Below, in pieces: positions 29,094 to 32,830 of a stretch of 33,035 nt of DNA. Position 1 is the stretch's first letter. Each line of letters opens with the position of its first letter. Source of the stretch: Solirubrobacterales bacterium (lineage in GTDB: Bacteria > Actinomycetota > Thermoleophilia > Solirubrobacterales > Solirubrobacteraceae); contig PLES01000146.1 of NCBI GenBank assembly GCA_003137075.1, positions 204 to 33,238 of the forward strand. Reading direction: 5' to 3'. A program made the position numbers and the translations under genes. The notes beneath the pieces are model-generated. The model searched no databases. It saw only the letters and a list, made by a program, of their open reading frames with translations, and was not told the origin of the DNA.

Positions 29094-30242
29094 ATGCCGA
29101 CAACAGATCAAGTAAACGAGGCGCTGCGCGCCGTCATCGACCCTGAGCTTCACAAGGACATCGTCACGCTCGGAATGGTCCGTTCGATCGATGTCCACGC
29201 CAACGGCGTGGTCGATGTCACGGTCTCACTGACAACACCAGGCTGCCCGATCCGCGATCACTTCCAGAACGGTGTCACCGACGCGATTCGCGCGCTCGAC
29301 GGCGTCACCGGCGTCAACATCAGCTTCGACGTGCTCTCCGATTCGGAGAAGCAGTCGCTGCGTGGCAAGCTCGGGCGCGGCTCGCTGCCCGAAGGGGCGC
29401 TCGCCCAGGTCAAGAACGTGATCTGCATCGGCTCTGGTAAGGGCGGTGTCGGCAAATCAAGCGTGACCGCGAACATGGCCGCGGCCCTGGCCGCCCTCGG
29501 CAAGAAGGTCGGTGTGATGGACGCCGACGTCTGGGGCTACTCACAGCCGCGCATGTTCGGTCTGAACGGTGAGCGCGCCAAGATCAACGGGCAGCACAAG
29601 ATCATCCCGCTCGACGGCGGTGACGGCATCAAGGTCGTCTCAATCGGCTTCTTCATCGAGCAGGACGCCGCCGTCGTGTGGCGCGGACCGATGCTTCACA
29701 AGGCGCTGCAACAGTTCCTTGAGGACGTGGACTGGGGCGAGCTCGACTATCTGCTGATCGACCTGCCCCCAGGCACCGGCGACGTCTCGATGACGCTCTC
29801 CCAGTTGCTGCCACAGGCCAAGTTCCTGATCGTCACGACGCCGCAGGCGGTTGCCCAGAAGGTCGCACGCCGCTCGGCCGACATGGCGACCAAGCTCAAG
29901 CTTGAGATCGCTGGCGTGATCGAGAACATGGCCGGCTTCACGACGCCGTCCGGTGAGCACTTTGAACTCTTCGGCGCCGGCGGCGGCCAGTCGCTCGCCG
30001 ACGAGCTCGAGGTACCGCTGCTGGGTCAGGTTCCGTTGACGATGTCACTGCGTGAGCAGGCCGACGGCGGTCTGCCCGTGGTCTTCGCGAACCCACAGGA
30101 CTCGGCTTCCCAGGCGATCACGCAGATCGCCAAGCGGCTGGTGGCGATGACGCCGGTCCAGTTGCCGGTGCTCGCGGCGATCGAGCCGGTCGCCGCTCCG
30201 CCGGCGCCCAAGCCGGTCGGTATGTCGCTGCCGATGGCCTGA
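29094..30242 (+). CDS. mrp: Mrp/NBP35-family ATPase, Fe-S cluster carrier
   Basis: 382 residues. The N-terminal MIP18/DUF59 domain (about 5-75: VNEALRAVIDPELHKDIVTLGMV, TPGCPIRDHF) precedes a P-loop with the deviant Walker A GSGKGGVGKS (113-122). MDADVWGYSQPRMFG, VVWRGPMLHKALQQFLEDVDWGELDYLLIDLPPGTGDV and VIENMAGF are family blocks. These ATPases load and transfer Fe-S clusters. The C-terminal CxxC of many homologues is absent, as in other actinobacterial members: FTTPSGEHFELFGAGGG is in its place. Cytoplasmic. A seven-iron ferredoxin gene faces it. Confidence 0.94.
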   Translation: MPTTDQVNEALRAVIDPELHKDIVTLGMVRSIDVHANGVVDVTVSLTTPGCPIRDHFQNGVTDAIRALDGVTGVNISFDVLSDSEKQSLRGKLGRGSLPEGALAQVKNVICIGSGKGGVGKSSVTANMAAALAALGKKVGVMDADVWGYSQPRMFGLNGERAKINGQHKIIPLDGGDGIKVVSIGFFIEQDAAVVWRGPMLHKALQQFLEDVDWGELDYLLIDLPPGTGDVSMTLSQLLPQAKFLIVTTPQAVAQKVARRSADMATKLKLEIAGVIENMAGFTTPSGEHFELFGAGGGQSLADELEVPLLGQVPLTMSLREQADGGLPVVFANPQDSASQAITQIAKRLVAMTPVQLPVLAAIEPVAAPPAPKPVGMSLPMA

Positions 30243-30833: not shown

Positions 30834-31142
30834 CTAGTTGACCATGCGAGGGTCGAGATAGAGGTTGTAAACCTCAACGTCGCCGACGGTGACCTGGCTC
30901 GTGACGGTGAAGTCCAGAGCGCCCCAGACGAACTGCGGAACAACGGTGCTCTTGACCGGAACGGTCAAGGTCCAGCCCTGTGTGCCCAGGACCGGAACCG
31001 GGATGCCCAGCAGGGACGTCCCCTGGGCAGTGGCGAAGATGGATGTCGTCGCCGCCGAGGCGGCAGAAGCCGGAATCAAAGCAATAGCTCCAGCAAGGAC
31101 GAGCATCCGGGTCGCCTTGGAGCTGAAAAGGAACTTCTTCAT
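30834..31142 (-). CDS. Small secreted protein of unknown function
   Basis: 102 residues from ATG 31142. A clear Sec signal peptide (MKKFLFSSKATRMLVLAGAI, then ALIPASAASA) predicts cleavage after residue 30, leaving about 72 residues, ATTSIFATAQGTSLL then beta-prone Val/Thr/Leu-rich sequence ending YNLYLDPRMVN, without cysteine or lipobox. I do not recognise the family. AAGGTG lies 6 bases before the ATG, favouring this start over ATG 31157; longer frames upstream are not supported. A possible SigB-like promoter and a perfect palindrome lie upstream. The gene is followed by a hairpin. Confidence 0.8.
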   Translation of the reverse strand: MKKFLFSSKATRMLVLAGAIALIPASAASAATTSIFATAQGTSLLGIPVPVLGTQGWTLTVPVKSTVVPQFVWGALDFTVTSQVTVGDVEVYNLYLDPRMVN

Positions 31143-31180
31143 GTGACGCACCTTCATGGTGTGCACTGGTAACCGAGCTA

Positions 31181-31197
31181 TCTCACACCGTGTGAGA
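31181..31197. promoter_or_regulatory. 17-bp perfect palindrome upstream of the secreted gene
   Basis: TCTCACAC (31181-31188), centre C, GTGTGAGA (31190-31197). It is 38 bases before the ATG of the secreted protein, inside the predicted mRNA leader. It could be a protein operator or an RNA hairpin. Confidence 0.5.
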
Positions 31198-31230
31198 CCT
31201 CTAGCTTTGCGTCGCCGGCTCGCGCCGGGT

Positions 31231-31257
31231 ATGCCCTTTTCAGTTGGTTTCAAAACC
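31231..31257 (-). promoter_or_regulatory. Possible SigB/SigF-like promoter of the secreted gene
   Basis: On the minus strand GGTTTT (31257-31252), 15 bases, GGGCAT (31236-31231). This resembles the general-stress GTTT-N13-16-GGGTAT promoters of Gram-positives. The start would be near 31222, giving an 80-base leader. Confidence 0.35.
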
Positions 31258-31399
31258 TCATCGGTCAACGGCAGCCGCGGGCTTTAGCACGTACCGGGAA
31301 TTGGACGCATGTTCTATCCAAACTTGGACCTGTGTCACACGGTTTACTGGGCGATCCCGCGCCTAATGCGAAGCGATCACAGAGCCGATACCGAACCCG

Positions 31400-32830
31400 A
31401 TGTCTTTTAACCCGAGCTTTGAGCAGCAGGAACACCTTGCCGATGAGCTGCGCCGCCCACAGGAGTCGATGACCGCTGCCGAACGGATCGGCGAGACGGT
31501 TACCGCGGGCACCTTTCTGCTGGCCGCCGCGGCGATCTGGCTGCTCGATCCGCCTCAAAGCTTCCAGGTCTGGCCGGCGTTGCTCTGCATCGCGCTGCTG
31601 GCGATCGCCACACGAGTTCAGTTCGACACACCATTCGGCTTCACGGTCGCCACCCAGTTGGCGTTCATTCCGCTGGTCTTTGCGCTGCCCGTGGCGCTGG
31701 TTCCGTTTGCGGTTGTGGTCGCGCTGACGGTCGCCGCGCTCCCGGACGTCTATACCGGTCAGGTCCGGCCAAGTCGCCTTGTCAAGAAGATCGGCAACAG
31801 CTGGTTTGCGATCGGCCCAGTCGCGGTATTCGCGCTGGCCCATACGCAACCCGATCACGCAGGCGTCTGGCTGCTGCTGGCGGCACTCGTCGCACAGTTC
31901 GCCGGGGACTCCCTGACCTCGACCATCCGCCTGACGCTCACGCAAAACCTGACGATCCGCGAACAGCTTGAGGACTCGTGGGTCTATGTGATCGATGCCG
32001 CGCTCTCGGGCGTCGGGCTCGTGGTGGCTGAAGACATCCACAGACGTGGCTACGAGCCGCTGGCACTGCTGCCGCTGTTGGGCCTGCTCGCCGTCTTCGC
32101 GCGCGAGCGGCGTGGGCGCCTCGAGCAGCTGCTGGAACTCAACAGCGCCTACCGCGGTACTGCACTGGTCCTGGGAGACGTGGTGGAAGCCGACGACGGC
32201 TACACCGGGGCGCACAGTCGCAGCGTCGTGGCGCTCTGCCTGGACGTGGCTCAGCTGCTGCAGCTGAGCCCCGAACAGAAGCGCAACCTCGAGTTCGGAG
32301 CGCTGCTGCACGATGTCGGCAAGATCGCGATTCCCAAAGAGATCATCAATAAGCCCGGCAAGCTCGACGACGAAGAGTGGACGATCATCAAGACGCACAC
32401 GGTCGAGGGTCAAAAGCTGCTCGACACCGTCGGCGGCTTCATGCGAGACGTCGGCCTGATCGTGCGCTCGCACCACGAACGCTGGGACGGGGGCGGCTAC
32501 CCGGACAAGCTGACCGGCGAGCAGATCCCGCTGGAGTCCCGGATCATCGCCTGCTGCGACACCTGGAACGCGATGCGGACCGACCGCTCATACCGCAAGG
32601 CGCTGCCGTTCGATCTGGCCGCGACTGAGATGGAATCGGTGGCCGGCGACCAGCTCGATCCACGGATCGTGGCGGCGCTGCTGCAGGCGGTCCAGAAGGA
32701 ACGGCTTGCAGAGGTTATGCCGGCGCCCGCGGCCGGGCGGCCGCAAGCAGCGCCGGTGATCGAACCCGCAGAACTTGCCGACCAGGCGTTCTCCGTAACT
32801 GCCGTCGTTCAGCTCGACACCGCAAGCTGA
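31400..32830 (+). CDS. Membrane-anchored HD-GYP phosphodiesterase
   Basis: 476 residues. About 7 hydrophobic segments (residues 30-235) form a membrane sensor domain of the MASE kind, then a short helix, then an HD-GYP domain (about 250-420). Metal motifs: ALLHDVGKIAIP (H304, D305) and HHERWDGGGYPDKLTGEQIP (H358, H359, D363), with the GYP triplet intact, so cyclic-di-GMP hydrolysis is the likely activity (established for the family; here inferred). The C-terminal tail is Pro/Ala-rich. No ribosome site is evident before ATG 31400; a strong hairpin follows the stop (32828-32830). Confidence 0.92.
   Translation: MSFNPSFEQQEHLADELRRPQESMTAAERIGETVTAGTFLLAAAAIWLLDPPQSFQVWPALLCIALLAIATRVQFDTPFGFTVATQLAFIPLVFALPVALVPFAVVVALTVAALPDVYTGQVRPSRLVKKIGNSWFAIGPVAVFALAHTQPDHAGVWLLLAALVAQFAGDSLTSTIRLTLTQNLTIREQLEDSWVYVIDAALSGVGLVVAEDIHRRGYEPLALLPLLGLLAVFARERRGRLEQLLELNSAYRGTALVLGDVVEADDGYTGAHSRSVVALCLDVAQLLQLSPEQKRNLEFGALLHDVGKIAIPKEIINKPGKLDDEEWTIIKTHTVEGQKLLDTVGGFMRDVGLIVRSHHERWDGGGYPDKLTGEQIPLESRIIACCDTWNAMRTDRSYRKALPFDLAATEMESVAGDQLDPRIVAALLQAVQKERLAEVMPAPAAGRPQAAPVIEPAELADQAFSVTAVVQLDTAS

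What the first reader, a model, noticed from the sequence alone, without database searches (positions are those of the whole stretch)
30834..31260. Small secreted orphan with a SigB-like promoter and a palindromic leader
A 72-residue mature protein of unknown family, with clear signal peptide, lies behind GGTTTT-N15-GGGCAT and a perfect 17-bp palindrome within the predicted leader. It may be a stress-induced extracellular factor with post-initiation control.
Basis: partly seen in the sequence, partly recalled or inferred. Interest (0 to 1): 0.5.

Follow-up and report, generated by a model that had tools for sequence, protein, structure and literature searches.

The report
c-di-GMP riboswitch before secreted protein
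The leader of this small exported protein gene is a known kind of RNA sensor for the bacterial signal molecule cyclic di-GMP, and the protein is a shortened member of an unnamed secreted family that tends to sit beside an enzyme predicted to destroy that same signal.

Summary
The small exported protein is there as described, but the leader is something else. Window 31245-31165 (minus strand) is a complete c-di-GMP-I (GEMM) riboswitch aptamer: 59.8 bits against a gathering score of 35, E 1.8e-9. The proposed SigB "-10" GGGCAT belongs to the aptamer's conserved core, and the 17-bp palindrome is the tip of its P3 hairpin, whose pairing largely persists across 13 related leaders despite changed letters. 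The SigB motif is at chance level. The protein is a half-length member of a Solirubrobacterales family of secreted proteins of about 200 aa without Pfam match and with a predicted CBM/MAM-like jelly roll. HD-GYP phosphodiesterase genes lie beside 16 of 30 family loci, or 10 of 23 without the loci that seeded the search, against 2 of 29 control loci. At least 12 further family genes carry the riboswitch. Most likely c-di-GMP controls translation of a secreted matrix or glycan-binding protein, while the divergent HD-GYP enzyme lowers c-di-GMP; the sign of control is open. The riboswitch is a known kind; the exoprotein family appears undescribed in the libraries searched. "Post-initiation control" was right; SigB and stress were not supported.

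The parts
31165..31245 (-). c-di-GMP-I (GEMM, RF01051) riboswitch aptamer; GCGA tetraloop on P2, no tetraloop receptor seen in P3
   Evidence: Rfam 59.8 bits (cut-off 35), E 1.8e-9, model 1-87 of 87; RF03168 58.0 bits, below its cut-off of 65.9; 72 of 81 aligned positions identical in G011 and 67 of 81 in G007, against 63 and 54 of 132 upstream
31181..31197 (-).
   Evidence: changes on both sides at columns 53-62 (C-G, G-C, A-U, G-U; one non-pair) and 46-71 (A-U, G-C) in 13 aptamers
31235..31235 (-). Position matching Vc2 G20 (ligand contact); A47 = 31208 and C92 = 31169, all three kept here. My mapping
   Evidence: Sequence and invariant G11, A38, C77; roles of G20/A47/C92 from passages of PMC3764141 and PMC11218506
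31231..31257 (-). GGTTTT-N15-GGGCAT, the proposed SigB promoter: rejected; its -10 is in the aptamer core
31149..31155 (-). Shine-Dalgarno GAAGGTG, 9 nt after the aptamer; can pair with ACACC at 31162-31158
   Evidence: Sequence; folding
31123..31131 (-). CCTTTTCAG in codons 4-7, perfectly complementary to CTGAAAAGG (31243-31235) of the aptamer's 5' strand: candidate anti-aptamer pairing
   Evidence: p about 0.003 here and 0.007 in G011, 300 shuffles each; both strands identical in G011; not found in the other 11 leaders
30834..31142 (-). Gene of the exported protein, 102 aa: signal peptide 31142-31053, mature part 31052-30837; C-terminal half of a CBM/MAM-like secreted family
31400..32830 (+). 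Divergent gene: membrane HD-GYP protein (HDVGK ... HHERWDGGGYP), predicted c-di-GMP phosphodiesterase
   Evidence: Pfam HD_5 E 2.5e-36; motifs; homologues next to family genes in several genomes

Best explanation
The gene is controlled by a translational class-I c-di-GMP riboswitch. Shown by computation: the leader is a full-length aptamer of the sub-type with a GYRA tetraloop and no receptor, with the three ligand-contact positions kept, ending 9 nt before the Shine-Dalgarno and 23 nt before the start codon; the protein is a short member of a secreted jelly-roll family; family genes are linked to HD-GYP genes. Inferred: c-di-GMP binding; translational control, because there is no room for or sign of a terminator; probably, but not securely, an ON switch, because folding of the aptamer would break a 9-bp pairing of its 5' strand with codons 4-7 (in the three G087 relatives, an 11-bp pairing of P3 with the Shine-Dalgarno); and a role of the exported protein in the extracellular matrix or in glycan binding. 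The divergent HD-GYP enzyme would lower c-di-GMP, so the locus would hold a reader and an eraser of the same signal.
For: Rfam hit far over the cut-off; the one RF01051 match found in the 3.86-Mb genome (strict filters). Conservation starts at the aptamer. Pairing in 13 aptamers: 95.5% of cells paired, 19 cells changed on both sides, covariation score 0.262 against 0.168 in shuffles, 0 of 500 reaching it; slid versions pair in 33-46% of cells. Riboswitch directly upstream of family genes in G005, G007, G011, G019 (3), G087 (3), G121, G138 and G141. No terminator-like site. HD-GYP-like domain in 16 of 30 family loci against 2 of 29 ferredoxin loci (Fisher p 1e-4); without the 7 loci whose genes seeded the family profile, 10 of 23 (p 0.0024). 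Fold of a full-length relative: VIA Z 13.2, rmsd 3.0 over 129 residues, to porphyran-binding CBM 8xmz; CBM16 at Z 12.6.
Against: No binding or expression data. The window aptamer has two oddities among 13: GGGCAUACC, and a C-C mismatch at the base of P2; neither falls on the positions listed as highly conserved in the PMC3764141 passage, but weaker binding is possible. Only 6 of the 30 family loci scanned carry a riboswitch over the cut-off. Two of the covariation measures are within reach of shuffles (pairs with a change on both sides 31/500, further pair types 156/500), and these shuffles do not remove relatedness. The 9-bp pairing has two sequences behind it. Predicted Shine-Dalgarno accessibility does not speak for ON in the window (0.43 in both states) and speaks against it in G011 (0.35 to 0.04) and G019c430 (0.30 to 0.09). 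The protein lacks the N-terminal half of the jelly roll and its own model is poor (pLDDT 51.5).
Confidence: 0.85

Rival explanations
1. Decaying locus: the aptamer is recognisable but the gene is a truncated remnant, and the riboswitch is losing function.
For: The protein is the only complete half-length member among the 81 matches (the two other frames under 180 aa, G026 and G092, run into contig ends); the aptamer has one broken P2 pair and one unusual core letter.
Against: Clean signal peptide and open frame, coding-like GC3, kept C-terminal strand (NLYLDPRM; DFYVDPRM in G011), aptamer 72 of 81 identical to G011, ligand contacts kept.
Confidence: 0.2
2. c-di-GMP turns the gene OFF: the folded aptamer, ending 9 nt before the Shine-Dalgarno, blocks the ribosome, or leaves ACACC free to pair with the Shine-Dalgarno. 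(Sign only; same riboswitch.)
For: Short spacing; the local ACACC-GGUG hairpin forms both in the full fold and with the downstream part alone; in G011 and G019c430 the Shine-Dalgarno is less accessible when the aptamer is kept apart.
Against: Window: no difference (0.43 in both); G087c30 and c68 go the other way (0.29 to 0.73, 0.28 to 0.51), c39 is flat (0.28 to 0.26); the 9-bp and 11-bp pairings.
Confidence: 0.4
3. SigB-family promoter with a palindromic leader, stress-induced.
For: GGTTTT-N15-GGGCAT is present; G007 has GGTGTT at the -35 place.
Against: Chance-level motif; -10 inside the aptamer core; -35 place reads GAGCAC in the nearest orthologue G011.
Confidence: 0.03
4. The palindrome is a DNA operator for a repressor (perfect dyad), perhaps with the half-matching site at 31332-31343.
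For: Perfect dyad; a second 12-nt match, 92% complementary.
Against: The letters change between genomes while pairing is largely kept, at the same place in the aptamer; the palindrome pattern searched occurs once in the whole genome.
Confidence: 0.03

Closest known systems
c-di-GMP-I (GEMM-I) riboswitch, RF01051, sub-type with GYRA tetraloop and no receptor (described in a passage of PMC11218506)
   Same: All 87 model positions spanned, P2 and P3, G20/A47/C92 positions, GCGA loop, place in the leader on the coding strand
   Different: Continuous, palindromic P3 tip; U for A in the core (position 24 by my mapping); one P2 mismatch; binding not shown
Vc1 riboswitch of gbpA in Vibrio cholerae (PMC4744006, abstract and outline seen)
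   Same: Class-I c-di-GMP riboswitch before a protein for attachment to GlcNAc-bearing surfaces; positive regulation there
   Different: GbpA was not compared with this family here; no HD-GYP gene paired with it that I know of (recalled); other phylum
Carbohydrate-binding modules of the jelly-roll type (porphyran CBM 8xmz, CBM16, CBM22) and MAM domains
   Same: Predicted fold of a full-length relative (Z 13.2 down to about 11 in the 50 rows shown); last strand W-x-IDD-VYVDP
   Different: No Pfam match in the members scanned; ligand unknown; the window protein has only the C-terminal half
HD-GYP phosphodiesterases
   Same: Neighbour has the HD_5 domain and the HD and GYP motifs
   Different: Not part of the riboswitch transcript here (divergent); activity untested

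Membership tests
c-di-GMP-I riboswitch (RF01051) | Score over the curated gathering cut-off | tested here: met
   59.8 bits, cut-off 35
c-di-GMP-I riboswitch (RF01051) | P2 and P3 helices kept across relatives with changes on both sides | tested here: met
   95.5% of cells paired, 19 cells changed on both sides, 0 of 500 shuffles reach; two weaker measures are within the shuffles; one P2 pair is broken in the window itself, P3 tip mismatched in G087 (3) and G019c430
c-di-GMP-I riboswitch (RF01051) | Ligand contacts G20, A47, C92 | tested here: met
   Letters at 31235, 31208, 31169; numbering mapped by me from the passages
c-di-GMP-I riboswitch (RF01051) | Leader of a coding gene, same strand | tested here: met
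   Ends 23 nt before the start codon
c-di-GMP-I riboswitch (RF01051) | Binds c-di-GMP and changes expression | not testable with these tools
   Needs probing and reporter assays
c-di-GMP-I-UAU sub-family (RF03168) | Score over its own gathering cut-off | tested here: not met
   58.0 bits, cut-off 65.9
SigB regulon promoter | -35/-10 pair above chance and conserved | tested here: not met
   1 match, 0.36 expected; -35 place GAGCAC in G011, GGTGTT in G007
Secreted jelly-roll family defined here (A1, A4) | Profile match by a model built without the window protein | tested here: met
   21.5 bits, first of 505 window frames, 500 shuffles at most 7.3; hhalign E 7.9e-6, probability 83.8, over 31 columns; the full-length profile at E <= 1e-5 did not list it
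Secreted jelly-roll family defined here (A1, A4) | Full-length mature domain with the N-terminal QPFxxWGD half | tested here: not met
   Mature part is about 72 residues; N-terminal half absent
Carbohydrate-binding module | Jelly-roll fold | tested here: inconclusive
   A full-length relative matches CBMs, Z up to 13.2; the window protein's own model is too poor
Carbohydrate-binding module | Glycan binding | not testable with these tools
   Needs binding assay

The most novel reading that the evidence does not exclude
In Solirubrobacterales a recurrent module couples an exported jelly-roll protein to a membrane HD-GYP (or GGDEF-HD-GYP) protein, the exported protein acting as the outside partner or ligand of that sensor, with a c-di-GMP riboswitch closing the loop: the signal sets the dose of the protein that in turn tunes the enzyme destroying the signal. 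The window would be a minimal version with a half-domain.
Probability: 0.2. Interest if true: 0.7.

Novelty: new member of a known kind. Interest (0 to 1): 0.45.

Why it matters
It replaces a chance promoter match by a testable RNA sensor and gives an unnamed secreted family a likely signal (c-di-GMP, for the members that carry the switch) and a gene partner (HD-GYP). The open-library searches returned no paper joining riboswitch, Solirubrobacter and c-di-GMP, nor c-di-GMP riboswitch, HD-GYP and carbohydrate-binding; two broader searches were capped (20 of 852 and 8 of 483 papers listed) and settle nothing. In one search, 85 of 151 genomes (the window's own included) have this riboswitch class, so the group is a good place to learn what it controls.

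Tried and rejected
SigB promoter: chance level and not conserved. Sigma-70-like promoter and intrinsic terminator in 31100-31420: none found, so the real promoter remains unknown. DNA operator: disfavoured by covariation.

Direct search for relatives of the protein gave five weak matches besides itself in 151 genomes (E 2.5e-4 to 0.009; the best has a stop inside). Two of them (G087:C30, G026:C426) later proved to be family genes; the other three are not in the list. Genome contigs gave none. The family was reached through the neighbourhood of HD-GYP homologues. This is an ascertainment bias for the HD-GYP link: the seeds of the profile were found beside HD-GYP genes, so I recounted without the seven seed loci (10 of 23, still against 2 of 29).

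Ferredoxin side: my first scan was flawed, because loci of minus-strand matches are not turned and the printed list was cut; I draw nothing from it. Repeated with the family profiles on 29 ferredoxin loci (1.5-kb flanks): no family gene in any. For the same reason one search is used only for plus-strand matches.

Papers: one search listed three papers that use the sub-family names; one was read in passages. PMC9049102, PMC4545359 and others were seen only in listings.

Structure of the window protein itself: too poor to search. No CBM family was singled out: CBM16, CBM22, MAM and others tie.

Long-range pairing, 13 leaders, 300 shuffles each: Watson-Crick only, the window (0.003) and G011 (0.007) stand out and the other 11 do not (0.08 or more); with G-U the figures are window 0.037, G011 0.127, G087c30 0.020, G087c68 0.017, G087c39 0.053, G141 0 of 300, others about 0.30 or more. 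No correction for the number of tests.

Limits: the RF01051 list is cut ("more matches are not listed"), so 12 is a lower bound; the 107 matches and 81 are my additions of their tables and count matches, not genes. All 13 aptamers were used in the pair counts.

Full report
What is there. The window lies in contig C62 of a 3.86-Mb, 181-contig genome. The gene runs from 31142 to 30834 on the minus strand: 102 residues, a plain signal peptide and about 72 mature residues. Downstream on the same strand is a ferredoxin (30630-30370), beyond it an Mrp-type ATPase, 29094-30242 (+). Upstream and divergent is a membrane HD-GYP protein, 31400-32830.

The leader is a riboswitch. It is the one such match found in this genome. 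The -10 GGGCAT covers the strand that holds the ligand-contact G (GGGCAA or AGGCAA in 11 of 12 other family leaders, AGGCUA in one); the palindrome is the apical part of P3. The loop of P2 is GCGA and P3 shows no receptor, which fits the second sub-type described in a passage of PMC11218506. The positions corresponding to G20, A47 and C92, named as ligand contacts in passages of PMC3764141 and PMC11218506, are kept. That A at position 20 would mean cyclic AMP-GMP is recalled, not looked up.

Chance and conservation. Alone, the palindrome and the promoter motif are weak: 7 perfect palindromes in the window against a mean of 3.1 (range 0-8) in 30 shuffles, and 1 promoter-like match against 0.36 expected. 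Against its nearest orthologue (G011) the aptamer is identical at 72 of 81 positions and the DNA upstream at 63 of 132; against G007 67 of 81 and 54 of 132. Over 13 family leaders, 95.5% of cells in the 21 named pairs form standard pairs, 19 cells are changed on both sides, and no shuffle of 500 reaches those values or the covariation score; the number of pairs with double changes (31/500) and of further pair types (156/500) are within reach of shuffles, and shuffles keep no relatedness. The palindrome's own pair 53-62 appears as C-G (5), G-C (4), A-U (2), G-U (1) and one non-pair, G019c430; the G087 copies have a mismatch at 52-63 and a shorter tip. The window is the odd one out at two places: GGGCAUACC, and C-C at the foot of P2.

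The protein. No Pfam or PDB match. tblastn against loci around HD-GYP homologues showed weak similarity to the C-terminal ends of secreted proteins of about 200 aa. Nine of these, aligned, match the window protein by hhalign over 31 C-terminal columns, E 7.9e-6, probability 83.8. A model of 13 C-terminal halves built without it gives 21.5 bits, 500 shuffles at most 7.3, and it ranks first among 505 window frames. Its ending (VEVYNLYLDP) is of the type seen in G011 (FQLYDFYVDP) and G007 (AQVYDFYVDP), whose leaders are also the closest, where other members have IDDVYVDP-like endings. By the full-length profile the family is in 39 of 151 related genomes at E <= 1e-5, not counting the window's own, whose short protein was not listed. 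Pfam and NCBIfam gave nothing convincing for the members scanned (best E 0.12 and 0.022). A relative from Ca. Solirubrobacter pratensis is predicted as a beta sandwich (pLDDT 75, pTM 0.70) that matches CBMs and MAM domains, best Z 13.2. The window protein keeps only the last strands; of 81 matches it is the only half-length one not at a contig end.

The neighbourhood. HD-GYP-like domains lie within the 1.5-kb flanks of 16 of 30 family loci, 2 of 29 ferredoxin loci (window excluded) and 1 of 30 riboswitch loci at large, the last being the G011 orthologue (Fisher p 1e-4 for the first comparison). Seven of the 30 loci hold genes that seeded the profile because they lay beside HD-GYP genes; without them it is 10 of 23, p 0.0024. 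So the link is between the family and HD-GYP, not between the riboswitch and HD-GYP. At least 12 family genes in 8 genomes besides the window have the riboswitch directly upstream; among the 30 loci scanned with Rfam it is 6. Of these 13 riboswitch-bearing genes (the 12 and the window's), 9 have an HD-GYP gene next to them in the stretches looked at: divergent in G000, G011, G007 (cut by the contig end), G005 and G141, downstream in the same direction in G121, and downstream as GGDEF-HD-GYP in G087 (C30) and G019 (C430, C100). The first four are the window and seeds; of the other nine it is 5. None was seen in the ORFs scanned for G087 (C68, C39), G138 and G019 (C72).

How it may switch. The aptamer ends 9 nt before the Shine-Dalgarno, there is no terminator-like site, and a passage of PMC12452182 reports a tendency to translational platforms in Actinomycetota. 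In the window and in G011 the aptamer's 5' strand CUGAAAAGG is perfectly complementary to CCUUUUCAG in codons 4-7 (p about 0.003 and 0.007 in 300 shuffles), and the coding stretch is kept in both although it uses CTT, 18 of 191 leucine codons in six window genes. In the three G087 relatives the 5' strand of P3 pairs over 11 bp, with one G-U, with the Shine-Dalgarno. Both would be undone by the folded aptamer. But predicted Shine-Dalgarno accessibility, full fold against aptamer kept apart, is 0.43 and 0.43 in the window, 0.35 and 0.04 in G011, 0.29 and 0.73, 0.28 and 0.51, 0.28 and 0.26 in the G087 copies. ON is therefore only slightly favoured, at about 0.55, and OFF stands at 0.4.

What it is like. 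The nearest well-studied case I know is Vc1 before gbpA of Vibrio cholerae, a class-I switch that raises expression of a protein for attachment to GlcNAc-bearing surfaces (PMC4744006, abstract and outline seen). Searches for a described combination of this riboswitch with HD-GYP and carbohydrate binding, or with Solirubrobacter, returned nothing; this covers only the open library searched.

Verdict. A sound riboswitch of a known class before an unusual gene. The half-length exoprotein and the family's tie to HD-GYP genes are the parts worth following.

Noticed in passing
L069:136-660 and L086:1649-2083: In two related genomes (G020, G117) the same riboswitch class lies before a type IV pilin-like gene (GFTLxELLVVxLIxGILAAIAIP, by eye).
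   Followed up: no
L064:1778-3079, L067:1752-3080, L063:1594-3078, L073:1620-3074, L085:140-1630, L091:1593-3080: Other plus-strand RF01051 copies in the group precede membrane proteins that look like GGDEF proteins and large exported proteins that look like glycoside hydrolases (by eye, not scanned).
   Followed up: no
G078, G048, G090, G065, G057, G037 and G071: The jelly-roll family is expanded to 5-16 matches per genome in some genera (g22, g11), often inside much larger open frames; no riboswitch link was examined there.
   Followed up: no
window 31332-31343: GTGTCACACGGT between the two divergent genes, 92% complementary over 12 nt to one palindrome arm; probably chance.
   Followed up: partly
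L020:2979-3503 (G035): A family member (175 aa) lacking a stretch in the middle of the domain, beside an HD-GYP gene; another length variant of the family.
   Followed up: no
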